From Sphingopyxis sp. DBS4 (GTDB taxonomy: Bacteria; Pseudomonadota; Alphaproteobacteria; Sphingomonadales; Sphingomonadaceae): 64,000 nt of DNA. Below are positions 53,803 through 64,000 of this stretch, piece by piece. The position numbers were made by a program, and so were the translations under genes. The DNA is taken from the NCBI RefSeq assembly GCF_024628865.1, contig NZ_CP102384.1:4227001-4291000 (forward strand), in the 5' to 3' direction. The notes under the pieces were generated by a model. The model was not told the DNA's origin. It saw nothing but the letters and a program-made list of their open reading frames with translations, and searched no databases. Each line of letters opens with the position of its first letter. The stretch's first letter is position 1.

Positions 53803-56800
53803 TCAGTTCGGATAAGCCAGCGGCGGGCGCCACGCGCTCTGGTCGACCGCATCGCTGACCTTGTAGACCAGCCCCTTGCTGTTCAGGAAGAATTTCTCCA
53901 TCTCGCTGCGCGTGAAGGGGCGCGAGCCGACGCGGCCGAAGATCGCGATCTGGCCGCCGGTCTCGTCGACCGCGCGGTCGCGGTCGAGGCCCTTCGACAG
54001 CGCGAGCGCCGGCGACGGGGTCTTCGCCCAGGCGATCAGCTCGGGGGTCGGTTTCGGCGAGAAGCCGTAGAGGCCCGGATTGTCGGGACTGGTGAGCTGG
54101 AGCACCTTGATGCCGTTCCGCCCGTCGGCGACATAGGCGAAGAGCGAGGCGTTGGTCGATCCGACGATCACATCCTCGGCATCGTTCATCGCGCCGCCAA
54201 AGGTCAGTCCCGGCCAGACGATCGGCGCCGCGGGGCGCGTCACGTCGACGATGACGAGCCCGTCCTGCTTCGCCGCGACATACATATAGGTGCGCGCGAC
54301 ATAGATTTTCCGCGCATCGGCAAGCCGCACCGCCCCGCTCGGCACCGGCACCGGCCGGTCCATATGGGTGATGTCGAACAGGCTGACGCCCTCGGCATCG
54401 GTGACCCAGAGGTAGCGGAACTGCACCGCGCTGGCGCGCGCGTCGCTCAGCGGCAATTGCGCCGTGACCTTGGGCTCCAGCGGGGTCGAGAGGTCGACGA
54501 CGACGAGCCCGGCGTCGGTGGTGATATAGGCATAATCGCCCGCGAGCGTGACGTGCCGCGCCCCGGCAAGGACATTGTCGGGGTTCCAGGTCAGCGCCCG
54601 CGTCAGCCGGTTGTTGCGGAATTCGCCGTCGGCCATCGTGTCGATGTCGACGAGGATCAGACCTTCGACGCTGTCGGTGATCACCGCGTAGCGATAGAGC
54701 GGGTGCAGCGCCTGCTCGTGATTCTCGGGGAAATTCTTCCGGATATTGTCGTTGCGTTCCATGCTGATCGGCTGGTTGGTGCCGATCGCCATGCAGGTCG
54801 CGTTCGTGGTCTTGACGTGCGTGTCGTGGCCGAGCGGCGAGAAGGGCGCGCGGACGATGCGTTCGGAGAAGCCCTTGTTGCCGACCGAGGCGACGTCATA
54901 GACGCGGAAGCCACCCTTGCCCTCCGCCACGAACATATATTCGCCGCGCTGCTGGAGGCAGTTCACCCGGCCGCTCGTCCCCTGAACGATGTTGCGGAAT
55001 TCCTCGAGCGACTTGCTTTCGCCCGACACTTTCTTGTCGAACGTCTTGCCGCGCACCCAATTCTTGAGCTCGCGCCCGTTCTGGTTGACGTGCAGGTTCC
55101 AATAGTCGGGATAGGCATATTTCTGCAGATAACTGCCGATCACCGCCTGCGGCTCTTCCCATTCGGTGACGCGGGTCGCCTGGAAGCTGTCCTCCTGCCC
55201 CGACCAGACGTTGAGGCCGACGAAATTGACGAAATTGGTGCCCATCAACATGAGCTGCGACATGATCGCATTATTGTCGTCGGCCGCCGACAGATGGCAG
55301 TCGGTGCACTGCTTGGTTTCCTGGCGGCGCACCGTGTGCGGGAAATGCGGCGCGAACGCCTGGCTCGAGAAGCCCGCGGCCGAGATCGGCGGTTGCTGCA
55401 CATAGATGCGTTCGCGGTTGATGTTGGTCGAGGACAATATCAGCGCCGAGGAGGATCGGACCGGGGTGATGATGCCGCGCGGATTGCCGTCCGCGTCGGG
55501 TTCGCCAGGCTTGGTGAGCATGTGCCGGCCGAGCTGGAACATCTCGTCGCGCGCCACTTGCGGATTGTAGGTCGCGAAGTTGCGCGTCTCCTCGCCCTCG
55601 AAATGATGCATCTTGGTCTTCCAGTTCGCCTCGATCGGCAAATGGCAACCGCCGCAACTCGTCGTCCACGACAGGTGGCAGGTGAAGCAGGTCATGCGGT
55701 CGTCGCCGTGCGCGCGATCCTCCTTCGGAACTCCCGGCCCCCAGGCGAAGCTGCCGTCGTCGGCGCCCGACCGCGACATCAGCTTGGCGCGCGCCGCCTT
55801 GGCGTTGAAATGCGGCCCCGGCGTCACCGACTGCTTGACGAGACTGACCTGCCATTCGAGCTTCGGATCGACGATCGAGCGCTGGATCAGCCCGGTGACC
55901 TCGCCATCGTCATTATACTGGAATTCGAAGCGCCGACGGCCGTCCATGTTGCGCAGCAGCGCCAGATTGGTGCCCTGCGGCCGCGCCGCGACGTTCGAGG
56001 TGAGCAGATTCGGATAGGCATCGGCGGTGCCGTGGCAGTCCTTGCAGCTGATCTCGATCGCGTTCGCGACCTCGCCCTGGATATAGCCGTTGCCGTGCGC
56101 GTCCTGCGCGAAGTGGCAGTCGGCGCACTGCATCCCCTTTTCGGCATGGATGTCCATCATATGGACGGTCTTGCCGGGGTTGAGGCCGGGGGGCACGAAC
56201 TTGCCCTCGACCCCCGGCTTGCCGGGATCGGCGCTCGACAGGCAAAGTTCGCGCTCCTTCGCGCCCTCATAATGGTCGCAGCTCTTGCGCCATTTCTCGG
56301 GATCCTTGGGATCGACGATATGCGCGGTGTCGGTGCCGTAGGTCGACATATTGCCGTCGGCGTCGAGCAGATTGCCGTTCCGATCGCGCTTGAAGATGCC
56401 GCGAAAGTTCCAGCCGTGGCCGTGATAGTCGGCAAACTGGGTGTTCTGGTTGGTGTCGTTGATGTCGTAGACGTCGCGCAGGAACTCGACGTTCGACCAC
56501 AGGCCGCGCGGATTCGCGCCCTCGGGATTGCGTTCGAGCGCCTGGTGAACCTCGGCCGCGGTCGGATAATGCTGCTGCTTGTAGGTCTTCTGATACTCCT
56601 CGTCGCTCATCCCCGGCGGGCGCGGCGCTGTGTTGTTCGGTCCCGGCCACATCTGCGGCGCGTCGGATTCATAATCCCACATCGTGTAGCCGAGGTAGGA
56701 GTTCAGGAAGATGTTCGGCTGGTGCATGTGGCAGGTCATGCACTGGGAGGTCGGGATCGCGCGGGTGAAGGCGTGGCCGATCGGATGCCCCGATTCGAGC

Positions 56801-58107
56801 CTTTCCCTGACCGGCTTCACCTGCGGTCCGGCCGCCGCGGCGGCGGGATCGACGAGCGCGCCATGCTCGCTGGCGTCGGGCGCGTGACTTCCGGCGGCGT
56901 CGTGGCCGCCGCCGTGTCCGTCCGCATCGGGCTTCCACTTGCGCTCCGCGATCGTCGGATCGACCGTCGCGGTCTCGCCGTCGCGGCCATATTGCGCATA
57001 GATCAGGCTGTGCCGCGGCTCGCGGTCGTTGGCGTAGATGACATGGCACCCGGCGCAGCCCGAATGGCGATAGTCGCCCGGCTGGTCGTTGGTGCCCATG
57101 AACCACATATAGGGGTCGTTGAGGCGGGTCTTGTGGAGGTTGAGGATCGCGATCGCGACGCGCAGCCCGGTGCCGGGACCGCGGTTCGACTGCTTGAGGT
57201 CGGGGCGTCCCGGTTCCTCGAGCCGCTGGATGCTGCCGGTCGGGTTGGGCAGGCCGATTTCGGAGAATTGGGTGCCGATGTTGCGCCCGCCGCGCTCGAA
57301 GACGCGGAAGACGTCGCTCGGCGGGGTGACGTTCCAGCGCGGCAGCGGATAGACTTTGGCGAGCGCGCCGCGCTTCTTTTCGGCATCGGTCAATATCTTG
57401 TCGAAGCCGAAGGCCGGATCGCACGCCTGCTTATATTGTTCGGCGGTCAGCCGCGACGAGGGTGAGAGCAGGCACGCCGCCTTGCCGTCGCGCGTATAAG
57501 CCTCGCCGAAGATCGAATTCTTGAACGGGACAATGCCGTTGTTATAGGCGCCGCCCGCCCAGAACATCGCCGCGGTCGACATCAGCGAGCGCTCGGCCGC
57601 CTCGATCACCTCGAGGTGGCAGGACCCGCACGCCTCGCGCGCGACGCGATAGTCGCTCGGGTTGACGAAGCGGATGAACTCGGGGGCTTCCTTGTTGAGC
57701 AAGGTATAGCTTCGCTTGGGGTTCGCCGGACTGTCGCCCCATGCGCCGGGCAGCGTCGGCTGCGGATGCGCGACCTTCTTGGCCGCGAGATTATAGGGGC
57801 TGTCGTAACCGAGTTCGGGCTTGCCGAACGCGGCGGGCGAGGTCGAATCGCCGCCGTGGCAATCGGTGCAGCCGAGCCGCACCGCCGGGGATTTGTGCAT
57901 CGTCGGCAGGTCGGTGCGGACGTGGCAGCTATAGCAGCCCTCCGACTTCGTCTGCATGTCCGCCTCGCTCTGCTCCTTGGGCGCGGGCGGAGTGAAGCGA
58001 TAGGTCACCTGGACCGGCTTTTCCTCTTCGGAGGCGCGGACGCCTTGCGCGCCGACCGCCGCCATCATCAGCACGAAGGCAAGAAGGGCGAAGAGCTTGC
58101 GCGCCAT
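53803..58107 (-). CDS. Decaheme c-type cytochrome fused to an LVIVD-type beta-propeller
   Basis: A 1434-residue exported protein. A signal peptide covers about residues 1-26. Ten CxxCH sites (first pair near 58 and 80, last near 935) include an adjacent pair CFTCH/CGGCH. From about 1040 to 1400 there are LVIVD-like repeats (GLILVDIDTMADGEF, GLVVVDLSTPLEPK, GVSLFDITHMDRP, GLVIVDVTRPAAP), a probable propeller. Large cytochromes of this kind can pass electrons to or from acceptors outside the cell. It is the last gene of the four-gene operon, one codon after the barrel gene stop. No known family name fits the whole length; role is inferred. Confidence 0.9.
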   Translation of the reverse strand: MARKLFALLAFVLMMAAVGAQGVRASEEEKPVQVTYRFTPPAPKEQSEADMQTKSEGCYSCHVRTDLPTMHKSPAVRLGCTDCHGGDSTSPAAFGKPELGYDSPYNLAAKKVAHPQPTLPGAWGDSPANPKRSYTLLNKEAPEFIRFVNPSDYRVAREACGSCHLEVIEAAERSLMSTAAMFWAGGAYNNGIVPFKNSIFGEAYTRDGKAACLLSPSSRLTAEQYKQACDPAFGFDKILTDAEKKRGALAKVYPLPRWNVTPPSDVFRVFERGGRNIGTQFSEIGLPNPTGSIQRLEEPGRPDLKQSNRGPGTGLRVAIAILNLHKTRLNDPYMWFMGTNDQPGDYRHSGCAGCHVIYANDREPRHSLIYAQYGRDGETATVDPTIAERKWKPDADGHGGGHDAAGSHAPDASEHGALVDPAAAAAGPQVKPVRERLESGHPIGHAFTRAIPTSQCMTCHMHQPNIFLNSYLGYTMWDYESDAPQMWPGPNNTAPRPPGMSDEEYQKTYKQQHYPTAAEVHQALERNPEGANPRGLWSNVEFLRDVYDINDTNQNTQFADYHGHGWNFRGIFKRDRNGNLLDADGNMSTYGTDTAHIVDPKDPEKWRKSCDHYEGAKERELCLSSADPGKPGVEGKFVPPGLNPGKTVHMMDIHAEKGMQCADCHFAQDAHGNGYIQGEVANAIEISCKDCHGTADAYPNLLTSNVAARPQGTNLALLRNMDGRRRFEFQYNDDGEVTGLIQRSIVDPKLEWQVSLVKQSVTPGPHFNAKAARAKLMSRSGADDGSFAWGPGVPKEDRAHGDDRMTCFTCHLSWTTSCGGCHLPIEANWKTKMHHFEGEETRNFATYNPQVARDEMFQLGRHMLTKPGEPDADGNPRGIITPVRSSSALILSSTNINRERIYVQQPPISAAGFSSQAFAPHFPHTVRRQETKQCTDCHLSAADDNNAIMSQLMLMGTNFVNFVGLNVWSGQEDSFQATRVTEWEEPQAVIGSYLQKYAYPDYWNLHVNQNGRELKNWVRGKTFDKKVSGESKSLEEFRNIVQGTSGRVNCLQQRGEYMFVAEGKGGFRVYDVASVGNKGFSERIVRAPFSPLGHDTHVKTTNATCMAIGTNQPISMERNDNIRKNFPENHEQALHPLYRYAVITDSVEGLILVDIDTMADGEFRNNRLTRALTWNPDNVLAGARHVTLAGDYAYITTDAGLVVVDLSTPLEPKVTAQLPLSDARASAVQFRYLWVTDAEGVSLFDITHMDRPVPVPSGAVRLADARKIYVARTYMYVAAKQDGLVIVDVTRPAAPIVWPGLTFGGAMNDAEDVIVGSTNASLFAYVADGRNGIKVLQLTSPDNPGLYGFSPKPTPELIAWAKTPSPALALSKGLDRDRAVDETGGQIAIFGRVGSRPFTRSEMEKFFLNSKGLVYKVSDAVDQSAWRPPLAYPN

Positions 58108-58110
58108 GGT

Positions 58111-60051
58111 CTAAAAACTCACGATCAGGTTGGCGAGGATCGAGACATAGGCCTTGTCGCGTTCCTTGTTGTCGAACAAATCCTTGAACCCCTTGCCGGG
58201 CAGAAGAACCGCGGCGCTGAGGCGGCCGACGATATTCTGCGTCGCCTTCGGCCGCCAGATGCTGGCGATCGAGAGGTCCCAGCCGATATCCTTGGGAATC
58301 GAGCCCTCGACGCGCAGATTCTGGAGCACCTTCGTATTGTCGAACCAGAGGTGGTTGGCGTTGACGCTGACGCGCATCTGCGGCGACAGGTCGAAATCGC
58401 CGCCCGCCCCGACGAAGACGGTGCCGGGGTTGTTGAAGTTCGACTGCCCCTCTTCCTTCGACGAGCGCAGCGAGTTCAATATGCCGTTGCGGCCGTTGAT
58501 CGAGATGACGCGTCCGCCGCCCGCGAAGGGGATCGTCTGCCTGATCCAGTAGCTGGTGTCGGCGCCGCCGAAGATTGGATTCTCGAAGATCGCGTCGAAG
58601 CCGCCCTCGGTATTATTATAGGGATCACGGTCGCCGCTGGCGTAGAGACCCGAGAGGCGGAAGCGCATCCAGTCGTGATCGTAACTGAGTTCGGCGGCGG
58701 CGAAGCCGGCACGGATCTTCGCAGGTTTGTCGGTAAAGAAGCTGTTCCGGTCCTCGCCCAGCGCGGCGTAGAGACTGGCGGTGACGTTGATCCGCCCGAT
58801 CCGCCCGTCGGCGCTGTAGCCCAGATAAGTGACGTCATATTCGCGCCCGCGCAGCGTCCCCAGCAAGGCCGGCCGCACCGGAAAGCCGTTGTGGTCGATC
58901 TGCACGTCATTCTTTTCGCGGTTCATATTATAGGTCACGCTGACCTGGCTGGTCAGCCCGACGAACGGGAAATCCTGGCGATAGAGGTTGGCGGTGAAGA
59001 TGAAATCGTCGCGCGGCGTCTGGGTGATGTCGTTGAGGCCGCTGTTGGTGTCCTTTTCCAGCCGCCAGAAGGCCGCGACATTATATTGGAAGCGGTTGTT
59101 GTCGCGGTTCCCGAACAGGCGGACGCCGAGCTGGCTGTCGTTGAACAGGAAACCGCGGAAGTCGCTCTGGAACGGCTGAATGCCGATACGGATCGAGTGG
59201 AAGTCATAGCGGTCGCTGTCGTTGCCGAGATGCTTGTCGATGAAGGCTTCCTGCACGCCGATGAAATGATCGAAGCGATGGCTCTTCTTCGAAGGGCGCA
59301 CGTCGAGGACGCGCCGTTCGGGCACGTCGACATAATTGGCGTTATAGGCAAGCGTCAGGCGATATTCGACATCGGGCGGCTTGTAGGCAGTGTTGCCCTT
59401 GATCAGCGCGACCCCGCCGATGAACGTCTGCGACAGCACGAAGCTGCGATTCTTGCCGAAGACGTCGAGGCTGCCCGGCCGTGACGTCGTCTGGACGCCG
59501 ACCGGAATCGGGAAGGTGCGCGGTTCGAACACCGTGTCCGAGATCGCGTTGAGGACGAAGAACCAGTCGTCGCCGTTGATCGGCAGCCATTTGACCTTGC
59601 TGCGATCGATCGGCCGGTCGCCCTTCAGCGTATTCTGGTGATAGGGATCGAACCAGCGTTCCTTGACCACCCCCAGGCTTTCGATCAGGCGCCAGCGGTC
59701 GGGGATCGGAAGCTGGTCCTCGATTCCCGGAAAGGCCTGCGGCGGCGGTGGACGCAGCGCGCCGACATTGTCCTGCGTCAACTGGTCGGGAAGGTCGGGG
59801 GTATAGCCGGGGCGGCGGCGGCCCTCGATGATCTGGGTGACGAGATCGTCATTGACCATCAGCTGCCAGTCGACCGGCGGCGGGGGCGGGGTCAGTTCCT
59901 CGGCCGGCGGCTGGTCGGCAGGCGCAGTAGCGGCGCCTTGGTCGGTCGCGGGCGGATCGGCGGCGGGCGGCGGCGGCGGCACTTCAGCCGCGGGCGCGCC
60001 CTGCGCCGCGAGCGTCGCGATAATCGGCCAAAGGCTGACTTCGATGCTCAT
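58111..60051 (-). CDS. Predicted outer-membrane beta-barrel (porin-like) protein
   Basis: A 646-residue protein. ATG 60051 immediately follows the UAG of the lipoprotein gene in the same frame. The N-terminus (MSIEVSLWPIIATLAAQG) is hydrophobic but has no basic residue, an odd signal peptide. A proline-rich linker (about 22-65) follows. The rest has long alternating beta-strand patterns with many aromatic girdle residues and ends in Phe (ANLIVSF), as outer-membrane barrels do. In the operon it would be the channel for the cytochromes, as MtrB is for MtrA/MtrC, though no sequence relation to MtrB is claimed. Confidence 0.8.
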   Translation of the reverse strand: MSIEVSLWPIIATLAAQGAPAAEVPPPPPAADPPATDQGAATAPADQPPAEELTPPPPPVDWQLMVNDDLVTQIIEGRRRPGYTPDLPDQLTQDNVGALRPPPPQAFPGIEDQLPIPDRWRLIESLGVVKERWFDPYHQNTLKGDRPIDRSKVKWLPINGDDWFFVLNAISDTVFEPRTFPIPVGVQTTSRPGSLDVFGKNRSFVLSQTFIGGVALIKGNTAYKPPDVEYRLTLAYNANYVDVPERRVLDVRPSKKSHRFDHFIGVQEAFIDKHLGNDSDRYDFHSIRIGIQPFQSDFRGFLFNDSQLGVRLFGNRDNNRFQYNVAAFWRLEKDTNSGLNDITQTPRDDFIFTANLYRQDFPFVGLTSQVSVTYNMNREKNDVQIDHNGFPVRPALLGTLRGREYDVTYLGYSADGRIGRINVTASLYAALGEDRNSFFTDKPAKIRAGFAAAELSYDHDWMRFRLSGLYASGDRDPYNNTEGGFDAIFENPIFGGADTSYWIRQTIPFAGGGRVISINGRNGILNSLRSSKEEGQSNFNNPGTVFVGAGGDFDLSPQMRVSVNANHLWFDNTKVLQNLRVEGSIPKDIGWDLSIASIWRPKATQNIVGRLSAAVLLPGKGFKDLFDNKERDKAYVSILANLIVSF

Positions 60052-62040
60052 CTACAGCCCGTCGCAGACATTTTGCTTCGACGTGTCGAGGAACGGCGCG
60101 AAGGGGCAACTGACATAGCGCAGGCGCACCTTTGTATTGTCCGCCAGCGTCACGACGACCGTATCGGTGCGGATATCCTTCGGCGCATTGCCGATGGCGC
60201 CGGGGCCGCTGAAACGCGCGCCGCCATTGTGCGCGCCGAGGAAGCTGATCATGTCGTCCTGATCGATGCCGTCACCCGACACGCCGATCCCGCCGACGAG
60301 CTGATTGCCGCGATAGATGGGCACCGATCCGGGGAAGATCTGGATGCCGTTCTGCAGCCGGTTCTGCCCCGGCCGGGCGTCGGGCAGGGTCGTGCAGCGC
60401 GCCGGCGTGTCGGCGTTCTTGTTCTGCAAGAAGCCGACATGCTGGCCGATGTTGCCGATGATCAGCGCCGATTGCAGCCCGGTCGAAAAGGGATTGAACT
60501 GCGCGATCGGGCGCGAGAAGGGACCGTTCGGACGGCCGACCTCGCCATCGGGGAAATAGGGCCGCGACAGATTGCCGCCCGCGCGGTCGGGAAAGGCGAG
60601 CGTGCCGGTCAGCACCGTCTGGTCGTTCAGGAAACTGCGCACCGCGGTGACGAACTGGCGGATGTCGGCGCTCGCATTGGCGCTGAGCTCCGCTCCCGCC
60701 TGCGCGTTCGAGAAGAAAGCGGCCGTGCGCGCCTTCTGCAAGGACACGTCGGAGCCGAAGATCGGCGCATCGGGCGCGCGAACGATACCGAGCGGGGTGC
60801 CGAAGGTATCAACGACGCTGATCGTCACCTGCGCGCGGCTGTCGAGCGGCTTGCGGATCTGCGCGCGCGCGCGGCTCATCACCGTGAACGCTTCCTCGAG
60901 CAGCGCGCGCACCTCGGCGGCGGTGAGCGGGGCGCTGTTCGCGGCGCCGTCGGTGCCGGCGCGGATCGGGTAGCGGTTTGCGCCGCTGCCGTCGGTGAAG
61001 ACGAAAGCGTCGCGGTTCGCGAATTCGGCGGTGGTCGAGGCGCGGACGCCCGACGCCTCGCTGCCATAGGCGGCCCCAGCGCTGATCGCGGCATTGGCAT
61101 AGCCGGGGACCGCGACGAGATTGCCCGCGGTGCCGTTCAGCGACGCGAAGCTCGCGCCGCCGCTCGATTTCAGCCCCGCGGCGGTCGCGTCGGAAAAGCG
61201 CAGGCTGGTTCCGTCGACGCTGATCTTGTCGGCGGTGATCGCCGCCGGCGCTTCGAACCCGCGCGTGCCCGCGAGCGCGATAAATTCCTCGGCATCGTCA
61301 TCGACGTCGAGGATATTGGTGTCGAGGCCATAGACCCCGTCGCCCATCACCCCGACCGCGCCAACGAGCACGCCATTCTTGTAGAGCGGCAGCCCGCCGG
61401 GATCGGCGGCGAGGCCGAGTGGCGAGCGTTTCGGCCCGATCATCGCCGCCGCACCGGCCGCGCCGAAGCGCGACGAGAAATCGCTGCACGGAAGCTGGCT
61501 GAACTGCACGCCGAACAAGGGCCCGCTTTCGAGGCCGACGGTGGTCGGCGCGGGCGGGAAATGCTGCTGGACGATCTGGCTCGCGGTACGGGTCGAAAAG
61601 GCGTTGCCGCCGCTCGACAGGTAAGCGCCGGTGATCGCCTTGGCGATCGCGCCGCCCTCGGCGGGGAAGGTGACGTTCTGCGCGTCCATATTGACGCCGT
61701 TCGGCGCCGGCGCGGTCGTCGCGGTCGCGCGCGCGCCGGTCATGCGGAAAACGCCAAGGACGTTGCCGACGCGGTCGGTCACCGCGATCACCGACGGCAG
61801 ACCGCGCGCCTGCGCTTCCGAAATCGCGTTGGCGAGCACCGTCTGCACCTCGGCGACGCTCAGCGATTCGGCGGCGGGCGGCGTATAGAGCCCGCCCGTG
61901 GGGGTGGGCGTGGGGGTCGGGGTGGGCGTCGGCGTGGGGGTCGGCGTGCCGCCGCCTCCGCCTCCACCGCACGAGGCAAGAAGAAGCGAGCCGATCGCGG
62001 CAAAGGCCGCCGAACGGAAGAGATGGGATTTGCTTTGCAT
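60052..62040 (-). CDS. Lipoprotein with tandem HbpS/GlcG-like (DUF336) domains
   Basis: A 662-residue predicted lipoprotein. The lipobox LLASC puts the lipid on Cys24, followed by seven Gly and about eight Thr-Pro repeats, a flexible tether. Two HbpS/GlcG-type domains follow: the first opens LSVAEVQTVLANAISEAQARG and ends around GAVGVMGDGVYG; the second has LTAAEVRALLEEAFTVMSRAR ... GGIGVSGDGIDQD. HbpS proteins bind haem and sense redox in Streptomyces. Here haem handling or a structural role beside the cytochromes is likely. It begins 6 bp after the upstream cytochrome stop. Confidence 0.85.
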   Translation of the reverse strand: MQSKSHLFRSAAFAAIGSLLLASCGGGGGGGTPTPTPTPTPTPTPTPTGGLYTPPAAESLSVAEVQTVLANAISEAQARGLPSVIAVTDRVGNVLGVFRMTGARATATTAPAPNGVNMDAQNVTFPAEGGAIAKAITGAYLSSGGNAFSTRTASQIVQQHFPPAPTTVGLESGPLFGVQFSQLPCSDFSSRFGAAGAAAMIGPKRSPLGLAADPGGLPLYKNGVLVGAVGVMGDGVYGLDTNILDVDDDAEEFIALAGTRGFEAPAAITADKISVDGTSLRFSDATAAGLKSSGGASFASLNGTAGNLVAVPGYANAAISAGAAYGSEASGVRASTTAEFANRDAFVFTDGSGANRYPIRAGTDGAANSAPLTAAEVRALLEEAFTVMSRARAQIRKPLDSRAQVTISVVDTFGTPLGIVRAPDAPIFGSDVSLQKARTAAFFSNAQAGAELSANASADIRQFVTAVRSFLNDQTVLTGTLAFPDRAGGNLSRPYFPDGEVGRPNGPFSRPIAQFNPFSTGLQSALIIGNIGQHVGFLQNKNADTPARCTTLPDARPGQNRLQNGIQIFPGSVPIYRGNQLVGGIGVSGDGIDQDDMISFLGAHNGGARFSGPGAIGNAPKDIRTDTVVVTLADNTKVRLRYVSCPFAPFLDTSKQNVCDGL
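61898..61947. repeat. Coding 6-bp tandem repeat (Thr-Pro linker)
   Basis: About eight copies of a degenerate 6-bp unit encode the Thr-Pro tether of the lipoprotein. Slippage would change length in steps of two residues and keep the frame, so it is a length-variable linker and not an on/off switch. Confidence 0.8.
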
Positions 62041-62046
62041 ATCGCT

Positions 62047-63483
62047 TTACCGCAGCGCCCGGATCGCGCCGACCGCGCTGCCGAACGAGGTCTGGAAATC
62101 GGTGGGTTTATAGAGGTTGGGGTCCTTGACCGACGTATAGGCGCGGTCGATGTCGGCCCGGATTCCGGCTGCGGCGCCGACCGTGACCCGGCCCGATGAG
62201 ACCATCGCGTTGAGCAAGGTGTCGATCCCCATCACCGCCTGCTGCGATCCCGTATAGTCGGTGAAGCGGTCGGCGGACGCCTTTGCCGCGATCGCATCGA
62301 CCAGCGTGAAGGCGTCGGCGCCCGAGAAACCGCGCGATGCGAAGGCGCTCTTGAGCGCCGACACGGTCTGGCCGAGTTCGGCCGCGGCGGCGACCGCACT
62401 CGCGCGGTCGATGGTCATCGCCTTGTGGAACGCCGCGGTGCGCGCCGCAAGCTGCTCGGCAAGCGCGGGCGCGGCGACGCGCGCGGCGGCCGCCAGCATG
62501 ATCAGATTCTCGTCATTATAGGGCGGCATGCCTTCGGGAAGCGCGGCACGGCCGGGATTGTCGACGCTGGTCTTCACCGGCTTCGCCTGGTCGTAGATGC
62601 GACGGTGGCAGCTATGGCAGTCGAGGAAATAGAATTCGGGGAACATCCCCTCGGTCCCGCGCCGCGACTGGAAGAGCGACAGGCTGCGTTCGAGCGCGGT
62701 CGCCTGTCCCACCGCCCACATCTGGACATGGTCGGTGCGCGCATTGGCGGCGCCGAACTTGCGCCAGCCATAATCACTGTCTTCGTGATGATGCGCCTGG
62801 AGCGAAGAAAAGAGATCGAGCTCGAACGAGATGCGCGGATGGCCCGCCGCCATGATGCGGTGGGTGACGAACTGCCCCTCGCCCGCCGCGCCGAAGTGGC
62901 AATCGACGCAGACGCCCGCGCGCACCACCGGATCCTCGAGCTTGCGAAGCCCCGCGCGCAGGTTGGCGAGATGCTTTTCGCGCATTTCGCGGTCGGGGTC
63001 GGCGGTGGCGGCGATCCCGGCATAATGGCTGGCGATCCAGCCGCCCGCCGGGCCGTGGCACGATTCGCAGCCGACGCCGTCCTCGGCCGGCACCGCGCGC
63101 GCCGTCCCCGCGGTGCTGTGGCAGCCGAGGCACATCGGCGCCCTTGCCGGATCGCCGATGCCGAGATTGCGCGCGATGAACTGGCTGCGGCTGCCCTGCA
63201 GCACCGCCCAGGCACGGCTATGCGCGCCGCCGGGAGTTGAGGGCTCCTGCCATTTCATCAACTCGTCCTGGCGGACGACAGTGCCGTCGCCTTCCATCCG
63301 GCCGTGGCAGGTCGATCCGGCGCAGGAGGCCACCCCGACATAGCGCGCGCCGCCCTCGCCTTGCGAACGCGCAGGCGGGGCGGAGACGAGCGCCGCGACG
63401 ATCAACGCGAGCAAAAGAAGCGCGAGCGCACCCATGGCCGCCCATGGTCGCTCGCCGCGCCTCGCTATCGCGTCGGTCGTCAT
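62047..63483 (-). CDS. Multiheme c-type cytochrome, cytochrome c554-like
   Basis: A 478-residue exported protein. A single hydrophobic helix (about 15-35, GALALLLLALIVAALVSA) is a signal or inner-membrane anchor. Four CxxCH sites follow: CLGCH (about 116), CESCH (138), CVDCH (192) and CHSCH (291). An earlier CAGSTCH (about 54) has a longer CX4CH spacing and may bind a fifth haem. YVGVASCAGSTCHGR is the opening of cytochrome c554-type proteins. The C-terminal 150 residues are helical without Cys. It is the first gene of the operon and would feed electrons through the periplasm. Confidence 0.88.
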   Translation of the reverse strand: MTTDAIARRGERPWAAMGALALLLLALIVAALVSAPPARSQGEGGARYVGVASCAGSTCHGRMEGDGTVVRQDELMKWQEPSTPGGAHSRAWAVLQGSRSQFIARNLGIGDPARAPMCLGCHSTAGTARAVPAEDGVGCESCHGPAGGWIASHYAGIAATADPDREMREKHLANLRAGLRKLEDPVVRAGVCVDCHFGAAGEGQFVTHRIMAAGHPRISFELDLFSSLQAHHHEDSDYGWRKFGAANARTDHVQMWAVGQATALERSLSLFQSRRGTEGMFPEFYFLDCHSCHRRIYDQAKPVKTSVDNPGRAALPEGMPPYNDENLIMLAAAARVAAPALAEQLAARTAAFHKAMTIDRASAVAAAAELGQTVSALKSAFASRGFSGADAFTLVDAIAAKASADRFTDYTGSQQAVMGIDTLLNAMVSSGRVTVGAAAGIRADIDRAYTSVKDPNLYKPTDFQTSFGSAVGAIRALR

Positions 63484-63531: not shown

Positions 63532-64000
63532 TCACACAACCCCGAAAGCGAGCATCGCGTCGGCAACCTTCTTGAAACCCGCGATATTCGCGCCCTTCAC
63601 ATAATCGATATAGCCGTCGCCGCGATCGCCATAGGTCAGACAGCTCTTGTGGATGCCGTCCATGATGTCCTTGAGCATCTGCTGCAGCTCGCCCTCGCTC
63701 CACGCGCGGCGGCCGCTGTTCTGGCTCATTTCGAGGCCCGACACCGCGACGCCGCCGGCATTGGCGGCCTTGCCCGGCGCAAACATGATCTTCGCGTCGC
63801 GGAAGTGATGCGCGCCTTCGAGGTTGGTCGGCATGTTGGCGCCCTCGCTGACCGCGATGCAGCCGTTGGCGACGAGCGTCTTGGCATCCGCGCCGAGCAG
63901 CTCGTTCTGCGTCGCGCACGGCAGCGCGACGTCGCACGGGACGCCCCACGGCGTCTTGCCGGCGGTGAAGCTCGCGCTCTTGAACTCGGCGCAATAATCC
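63532..64000 (-). CDS. gdhA: NADP-type glutamate dehydrogenase, C-terminal part (cut by window edge)
   Basis: The visible 155 residues end ADAMLAFGVV. WGVPCDVALPCATQNELLG and GCIAVSEGANMPTN are hallmark segments of hexameric GdhA, followed by GAHHFRDAKIMFAPGKAAN and GGVAVSGLEMSQNS. It interconverts glutamate with 2-oxoglutarate and ammonium. Its stop lies 48 bp before the cytochrome operon start, on the same strand, so read-through into the operon is possible. The N-terminal two thirds are outside the window. Confidence 0.95.
   Translation of the reverse strand, partial: DYCAEFKSASFTAGKTPWGVPCDVALPCATQNELLGADAKTLVANGCIAVSEGANMPTNLEGAHHFRDAKIMFAPGKAANAGGVAVSGLEMSQNSGRRAWSEGELQQMLKDIMDGIHKSCLTYGDRGDGYIDYVKGANIAGFKKVADAMLAFGVV

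What the first reader, a model, noticed from the sequence alone, without database searches (positions are those of the whole stretch)
53803..63483. A tight operon combining two multiheme cytochromes, an HbpS-like lipoprotein and an outer-membrane barrel
Seen: four genes on one strand with gaps of 6, 0 and 3 bp. They encode an N-terminally anchored multiheme cytochrome, a haem-binding-type lipoprotein, a predicted outer-membrane beta-barrel and a ten-haem protein with an LVIVD-type C-terminus. Known: porin-cytochrome complexes such as MtrABC move electrons across the outer membrane, but they do not contain HbpS/GlcG domains or LVIVD propellers. Inference: this could be an undescribed trans-envelope electron conduit or haem-dependent redox system in a sphingomonad.
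Basis: partly seen in the sequence, partly recalled or inferred. Interest (0 to 1): 0.82.

Follow-up and report, generated by a model that had tools for sequence, protein, structure and literature searches.

The report
Split NAD(P)H-to-surface multihaem electron line
The four genes are real and are half of a widespread, apparently unnamed seven-gene system that looks built to carry electrons from the inside of the cell, through many haem groups, to the outer membrane.

Summary
In detail: four same-strand genes with gaps of 6, 0 and 3 bp encode a five-haem-site cytochrome (G1), an HbpS-like lipoprotein (G2), an outer-membrane barrel (G3) and a ten-haem/LVIVD protein (G4). In alpha- and gammaproteobacteria the genes also form one collinear operon, B1-B2-B3-G2-G3-G4-G1 (33 of 108 distinct loci; many others are short contigs or lack G1). 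The added half is an NAD(P)H-type flavoprotein with two cyclic-nucleotide domains and 16 ferredoxin cysteines (B1), a b561-like membrane protein (B2) and a membrane-anchored decahaem cytochrome (B3). In the window's genome B1-B2-B3 lies 1.8 Mb away, yet across 149 genomes of the family G3 and B3 occur together in 52, G3 alone in one (67% complete) and neither in 96. Best reading: NAD(P)H to B1 to B2 to B3/G1 to G4 at the outer membrane, probably cAMP-gated. The barrel is predicted 18-stranded and AlgE/OprD-like, unlike the 26-strand MtrB sheath. Gene content, order and co-occurrence are shown; direction, gating, surface location, outer-membrane crossing and acceptor are inferred. No description was found in 10 full-text searches of an open-access library.

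The parts
62047..63483 (-). G1: c-type cytochrome with five haem sites (4 CxxCH + 1 CX4CH), cytochrome c554-like, 478 aa; exported, probably periplasmic
   Evidence: CX4CH kept in 77 of 77 distinct homologues
60052..62040 (-). G2: HbpS/GlcG-like protein, 662 aa, PF03928, lipobox-like LASC
   Evidence: PDB sequence relative EfgA 6bws, E 1.7e-6; lipobox-like motif in 57 of 96 homologues
58111..60051 (-). G3: outer-membrane beta-barrel, 646 aa, no cysteine, about 18 strands predicted, AlgE/OprD-like fold
53803..58107 (-). G4: decahaem cytochrome with C-terminal LVIVD repeats, 1434 aa, signal-peptide-like N-terminus, no lipobox seen
   Evidence: 10 CxxCH in 108 of 108 distinct homologues; ten alpha-/gammaproteobacterial rows 57-67% identical to the first row

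Best explanation
G1-G4 are the outer half of a seven-gene NAD(P)H-driven electron-transfer line that spans the envelope. Cytosolic B1 oxidises NAD(P)H with FAD and passes electrons along four [4Fe-4S] clusters; its two cyclic-nucleotide domains probably gate it. B2, a b561-like membrane protein with conserved histidines, takes them across the inner membrane to B3, an inner-membrane-anchored periplasmic decahaem. B3 and G1 relay to G4, a decahaem/LVIVD protein held at the outer membrane, probably outside, with the barrel G3 and the lipoprotein G2, where an outer acceptor (mineral, humic, quinone, metal or oxyanion) is reduced. Shown: gene content, order, haem and cluster motifs, co-occurrence. 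Inferred: outward direction, cAMP gating, surface location of G4, passage across the outer membrane, and the acceptor.
For: Collinear B1-B2-B3-G2-G3-G4-G1 in 33 of 108 distinct loci and B3-G2-G3-G4 adjacent (among labelled genes) in 68 of 108; in the 41 loci at least 23 kb long, B1, B2 and B3 are each present in 39. In Sphingomonadaceae, G3 and B3 occur together in 52 of 149 genomes, G3 alone in 1 (67% complete), B3 alone in 0 after one weak hit (G144) was set aside, neither in 96. 16 C-terminal cysteines in 63 of 63 distinct B1 and no CxxC in the first 330 residues in 63 of 63, so not a thioredoxin reductase. Cyclic-nucleotide cassette Arg kept in 64 of 64 at both domains. Nine loci carry a class III cyclase domain nearby, and the sphingomonad module ends in a phosphoesterase whose best NCBIfam hits, both under cut-off, are cyclic-nucleotide phosphodiesterases. 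A GspF-family (T2SS) gene lies nearby in nine distinct loci (T2SS or prepilin-peptidase genes checked by Pfam in three), which fits secretion of G4.
Against: The barrel is predicted 18-stranded and closest to AlgE/OprD, so a haem chain through it, as in MtrAB, is not supported. G4 has no lipobox and its AlphaFold model is poor (mean pLDDT 54.4), so neither its location nor its fold is established. G2 lacks a lipobox-like motif in 39 of 96 homologues. Two long loci (L154, L161) hold no B gene and ten of 41 hold no G1. Named carriers include aerobes not known for mineral respiration (aerobic habit recalled). The cyclase, T2SS and phosphatase neighbours occur only in some loci. B3's FHA-like domain lacks the SRxH signature in 87 of 90.
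Confidence: 0.55

Rival explanations
1. A dedicated reductase rather than a general electron outlet: the AlgE/OprD-like barrel admits a specific small solute (metalloid oxyanion, quinone, nitro or other compound) and G4 is a periplasmic or outer-membrane multihaem enzyme that reduces it with electrons from B1-B2-B3, much as the Geobacter Ext cluster is tied to selenite/tellurite.
For: G4 is as conserved as an enzyme (57-67% identity to the first row across classes); the barrel is porin-like and well conserved, 42-56% identical to the window's for the 54 rows from named genome loci; G4's best NCBIfam hit is ExtM, 73.9 bits against a cut-off of 800; ExtI is a porin-like protein encoded beside multihaem cytochromes (PMC5877670, passages seen).
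Against: The ExtM match is two stretches, the best of 53 residues, far under cut-off; T2SS genes nearby in some loci and the lipoprotein G2 point outwards; no obvious substrate gene was seen among the neighbour clusters that I annotated.
Confidence: 0.25
2. The line runs inwards: G4 collects electrons from an outer donor such as Fe(II), Mn(II), a reduced organic or a cathode, and B1 makes NAD(P)H.
For: Multihaem chains can run both ways (recalled); a Haliea MAG whose isolate name suggests a biocathode carries the operon (L114).
Against: The flavin part of B1 is nearest to YpdA/thioredoxin-reductase-type NAD(P)H flavoproteins, under cut-off; driving NAD(P)+ reduction from such donors is uphill and no proton-motive coupling subunit was recognised (inference).
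Confidence: 0.1
3. A haem or iron acquisition system: HbpS-like G2 binds or degrades haem and the cytochromes reduce ferric iron at the surface.
For: PF03928 in G2.
Against: No haem or iron transport family was recognised among the recurring neighbour clusters that I annotated (not exhaustive); 25 c-type haem sites per set cost much iron (inference).
Confidence: 0.07
4. A plain member of the MtrCAB/porin-cytochrome family.
For: Two decahaem proteins plus a barrel. Sub-threshold matches to Pfam PF22113 (MtrC/MtrF domains II/IV, cut-off 30 bits): B3 28.9, G4 19.5, G1 12.9; the G4 homologue P0048 is listed with that domain.
Against: Barrel predicted 18-stranded and AlgE/OprD-like; the decahaem B3 is TM-anchored and scores 17 bits against a DmsE-family cut-off of 192.
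Confidence: 0.03

Closest known systems
MtrCAB / PioAB / porin-cytochrome complexes
   Same: Two ten-haem cytochromes and an outer-membrane barrel in one cluster; presumed electron passage through the envelope; sub-threshold PF22113 (MtrC/MtrF) matches in B3, G4 and G1
   Different: Barrel predicted 18-stranded and AlgE/OprD-like, not 26; decahaem B3 is anchored in the inner membrane behind an FHA-like domain; electrons seem to enter from a cytosolic NAD(P)H flavo-Fe-S protein rather than a quinol oxidase (the latter recalled for Shewanella); HbpS and LVIVD domains present
Geobacter ExtHIJKLMNOPQS (selenite/tellurite) cluster
   Same: Porin-like protein, five-, ten- and twelve-haem cytochromes, a b-type cytochrome and an Fe-S protein in one cluster (PMC5877670 passages); best NCBIfam hit of G4 is ExtM
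   Different: Only short-stretch similarity, far under cut-off; Rieske/cytochrome b pair instead of B1/B2; the passages name no HbpS, LVIVD or cNMP protein
AlgE / OprD-family 18-stranded outer-membrane channels
   Different: 13-14% identity to AlgE; poorly modelled N-terminal stretch of about 160 residues; found beside multihaem cytochromes
HbpS/GlcG (DUF336) proteins, e.g. EfgA
   Same: PF03928 domains in G2
   Different: HbpS-like stretches inside a much larger exported protein; ligand unknown

Membership tests
MtrCAB/porin-cytochrome | Large MtrB-type barrel (26 strands) sheathing a cytochrome | tested here: not met
   By predicted strand count, not by absence from a hit list: 18 strands of nine or more residues by my count, best matches AlgE/OprD; MtrB 26 strands per PMC7198977 passages. 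Prediction only, mean pLDDT 75, first ~160 residues poorly modelled
MtrCAB/porin-cytochrome | Soluble periplasmic MtrA/DmsE-family decahaem | tested here: not met
   B3 has 10 CxxCH but a TM-like segment before the first haem in 89 of 90, and scores 17.2 bits vs cut-off 192.2 for TIGR03508
MtrCAB/porin-cytochrome | MtrC/MtrF-type domain (PF22113 gathering score) | tested here: not met
   B3 28.9, G4 19.5, G1 12.9 bits vs 30; B3 is close, and one G4 homologue (P0048) is listed with the domain
MtrCAB/porin-cytochrome | Cell-surface multihaem protein | tested here: inconclusive
   G4 has ten haem sites and a signal-peptide-like start but no lipobox; T2SS genes in nine distinct loci are indirect
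MtrCAB/porin-cytochrome | Measured electron transfer across the outer membrane | not testable with these tools
   needs protein or cells
Geobacter Ext (ExtM) | NCBIfam equivalog score | tested here: not met
   G4 73.9 bits against 800
HbpS-like (PF03928) | Pfam gathering score | tested here: met
   85.1 vs 25 bits
LVIVD repeat (PF08309) | Pfam gathering score | tested here: met
   58.5 vs 20.2 bits
AlgE/OprD-type 18-strand porin fold | Barrel fold and strand number | tested here: met
Cyclic-nucleotide-binding protein (B1) | cNMP domains with phosphate-binding cassette (cassette residues recalled) | tested here: met
   PF00027 two stretches, 113 bits; cassette Arg 64 of 64 at both domains, Glu 63 and Asp 1 of 64 at the first, Glu 48 of 64 at the second; binding itself untested
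FHA phosphothreonine reader (B3) | SRxH pThr-contact signature (recalled) | tested here: not met
   [ST]RxH in 3 of 90 B3 N-termini, but SRxH in 20 of 21 separate haem-free FHA-type proteins near the operon. PF00498 itself passes for some B3 and was not hit for the window host's own B3

The most novel reading that the evidence does not exclude
A second-messenger-gated electron outlet: the cytosolic NAD(P)H pool is wired directly, without quinones, through a cAMP-switched flavo-iron-sulfur gate, a b-type membrane relay and 25 c-type haem sites, out past an 18-stranded AlgE-like barrel to a surface decahaem/LVIVD protein, in probably several hundred proteobacterial species, many not known to respire minerals. 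It would let cells dump reducing power outside on a signalling command.
Probability: 0.3. Interest if true: 0.92.

Novelty: new variant of a known kind. Interest (0 to 1): 0.78.

Why it matters
Envelope-spanning electron transfer is mostly studied in metal-respiring Shewanella and Geobacter (recalled). This would place a conserved and differently built chain in probably several hundred species, including culturable sphingomonads, where its role (redox balance, pollutant or metalloid reduction, electrode coupling) can be tested directly. The near-perfect pairing of two unlinked operons also shows which genes to knock out.

Tried and rejected
MtrCAB membership: rejected on predicted barrel size and decahaem type, with sub-threshold PF22113 hits told above. 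ExtM membership: rejected on score. Thioredoxin reductase function for B1: rejected, no CxxC in the first 330 residues (0 of 63). Phosphothreonine reading by B3: doubted. The G4 AlphaFold model (residues 26-1043, mean pLDDT 54.4) was judged too poor for a fold search and was not used. PDB sequence searches with the G4 and G3 alignments found nothing; single-sequence searches gave G4 and G1 only weak hits, the best to cytochrome c552/nitrite reductase and c554, and G3 none. Promoter and terminator scans were at chance level. MtrB is not among the 50 rows, which is no evidence of absence. Whether B1 prefers NADH or NADPH was not settled.

Literature, ten searches. Searches returned no paper. Of the 19 papers ('LVIVD') one passage was read (PMC6315138: LVIVD surface proteins of Methanosarcina, not this system); the rest were seen as listing only. 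PMC10654088 was seen by passages (only a remark on other proteins of Sphingomonadales).

Dropped rows and limits: G144 (E 8.9e-6, 448 aa open frame, a short partial match) was removed from the B3 count. Three loci duplicated between collections (L113, L118, L148) were removed from the 108; counts are before that removal, after. Loci were chosen by a G3 or G4 match, so presence of other genes is conditional. Gene labels come from my own HMMs with length and score limits. Neighbour clusters come from mechanical ORFs and only some members were checked by Pfam or NCBIfam.
Full report
WHAT IS THERE. Four minus-strand ORFs, 63483 down to 53803, gaps 6, 0 and 3 bp, GC3 0.85-0.87. G1 is cytochrome c554-like with 4 CxxCH and one CX4CH; G2 is HbpS-like with a lipobox-like LASC; G3 has no family hit; G4 has ten CxxCH and LVIVD repeats. 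Closest relatives are Sphingopyxis proteins. The gene upstream on the same strand, ending 48 bp before G1, is a glutamate dehydrogenase, NADP-type by best (partial, sub-cut-off) NCBIfam hit.

HOW WIDESPREAD. G3 is in 53 of 149 Sphingomonadaceae genomes. G4 is in 26 of 289 genomes of the class at E <= 0.001: 19 strong (3 of the window's own family, itself included, and 16 outside it), one contig-end fragment (G155) and six weak or partial. The G4 profile is in 11 of 274 gammaproteobacterial genomes at E <= 1e-20, and G3 is in 6 of 299 genomes sampled from the phylum, the window's own included. The 80 loci kept include Haliea, Parahaliea, Steroidobacter, Limnobacter, Oceanibacterium, Alcanivoracaceae and Woeseiaceae. 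Ten G4 proteins are 57-67% identical to the first row of the alignment, high for cytochromes of this kind (judgement).

THE MISSING HALF. Around related loci a second set of genes recurs. Pfam reads them as B1: pyridine-nucleotide flavoprotein, two cNMP-binding domains and 4Fe-4S ferredoxin domains; B2: cytochrome b561-like, under cut-off; B3: FHA-like N-terminus in several members (not hit in the window host's own copy), one TM segment and ten haem sites; and, in sphingomonads, B4: a metallophosphoesterase. With profiles built from these, 108 distinct loci show B1-B2-B3-G2-G3-G4-G1 in 33, the same without G1 in 18 and with G1 inverted in 7; G2-G3-G4 are consecutive among labelled genes in 95 of 108. 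In the 41 loci that are at least 23 kb long, G4 and G3 are in 41, G2 in 40, B1, B2 and B3 each in 39, G1 in 31. The two loci without any B gene (L154, L161) count against strict linkage.

SPLIT IN THE WINDOW'S HOST. Its B genes lie at G000:C1 about 2,483,271-2,489,440, 1.8 Mb from the window. Across the same 149 genomes G3 and B3 are both present in 52, G3 alone in 1 (G022, 67% complete), B3 alone in 0 after setting aside weak G144, neither in 96; Fisher p about 1e-39, which ignores shared ancestry. Shared ancestry is not the whole reason: in four genera (g15, g35, g78, g79) one sampled member has both and another has neither. In 23 of 52 the two sets lie within 15 kb. On the conjugative plasmid pMSHV of Sphingobium herbicidovorans both sets sit side by side, annotated only piecemeal.

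PARTS AND MECHANISM. B1: 16 cysteines in its last 230 residues in 63 of 63 distinct proteins, as for four [4Fe-4S] clusters, and no CxxC in its first 330 residues in 63 of 63; the cassette arginine is kept in 64 of 64 at both cNMP domains. B2 has histidines kept in at least 95% of 77 proteins at positions 145, 159, 169, 313 and 327 of the window host's ORF. B3 has ten CxxCH in 83 of 86 and nine in 3, and a TM-like segment before the first haem in 89 of 90. G1 has five sites in 77 of 77 and G4 ten in 108 of 108, so 25 c-type haem sites per set. The order of electron flow is inferred from topology. Gating by cAMP rests on the cNMP domains, on nine loci with a class III cyclase domain nearby, three of them fused to FHA (a tenth member of that cluster, L139, had no such domain), and on B4, whose hits to SpdA (140.8 bits vs 400) and CpdA (82.1 vs 225) are under cut-off. 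A PP2C-type phosphatase family follows in 25 loci (Pfam check on one), and separate FHA proteins lie near by. A GspF family (T2SS) lies near the operon in nine distinct loci, ten before one duplicate is removed (Pfam checks of T2SS or prepilin-peptidase genes in L066, L065 and L157); export of surface cytochromes by that route in Shewanella is recalled, not looked up.

NOVELTY. No named family or paper covering this gene set was found: LVIVD (one passage), multiheme cytochrome with FHA domain and porin, porin-cytochrome with sphingomonad and extracellular electron transfer (PMC10654088, passages), multiheme with cyclic nucleotide-binding, HbpS and others, Ext names, HbpS-like with multiheme cytochrome, multiheme with cNMP and extracellular electron transfer, multiheme cytochrome with Sphingopyxis (passages of PMC8258643, where Sphingopyxis appears once, for acetate), barrel terms, multiheme with alginate export. 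The main text of PMC5566968 holds none of six related terms. The library lacks most subscription papers, so absence is provisional. Some annotators do call single genes 'multiheme c-type cytochrome' or 'LVIVD repeat-containing protein'. I file it as a new variant of envelope-spanning multihaem electron transfer.

Noticed in passing
63532-64000 and L037:12536-13888: A glutamate dehydrogenase gene lies directly upstream of G1 on the same strand (48 bp), with PutA further out; the same gene cluster is near the operon in 10 loci of alpha- and gammaproteobacteria. Three members were checked by HMM.
   Followed up: partly
L039, L040, L046, L047, L049, L050, L068, L110, L137, L142, L151, L156, L181: An acetolactate-synthase-like TPP enzyme (PRK08322 family in the two checked, L050 and L151), in 12 of 13 loci with a member of an aldehyde dehydrogenase cluster, recurs beside the operon across classes; a link to the electron donor is possible.
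   Followed up: partly
L106:14871-16950 and similar: A PP2C phosphatase family (25 loci, one checked) and double-FHA proteins (two checked) follow G1, hinting at phosphothreonine control.
   Followed up: partly
L064:15635-16075 and similar: A small protein of about 150-170 aa, without Pfam hit in the two checked, sits upstream of G4 on its strand, between B3 and G2 where I looked, in 19 loci (18 distinct).
   Followed up: no
L184: Both modules on a conjugative megaplasmid of Sphingobium herbicidovorans; 13 of 72,556 plasmid records hold at least 80% of G4 in one place.
   Followed up: partly
L179: A MAG titled Klebsiella pneumoniae carries the whole operon; the name is probably wrong.
   Followed up: no
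L162, L167: MAGs titled Vicinamibacteria and Marinimicrobia carry the operon or most of it: transfer, or binning or naming error.
   Followed up: no
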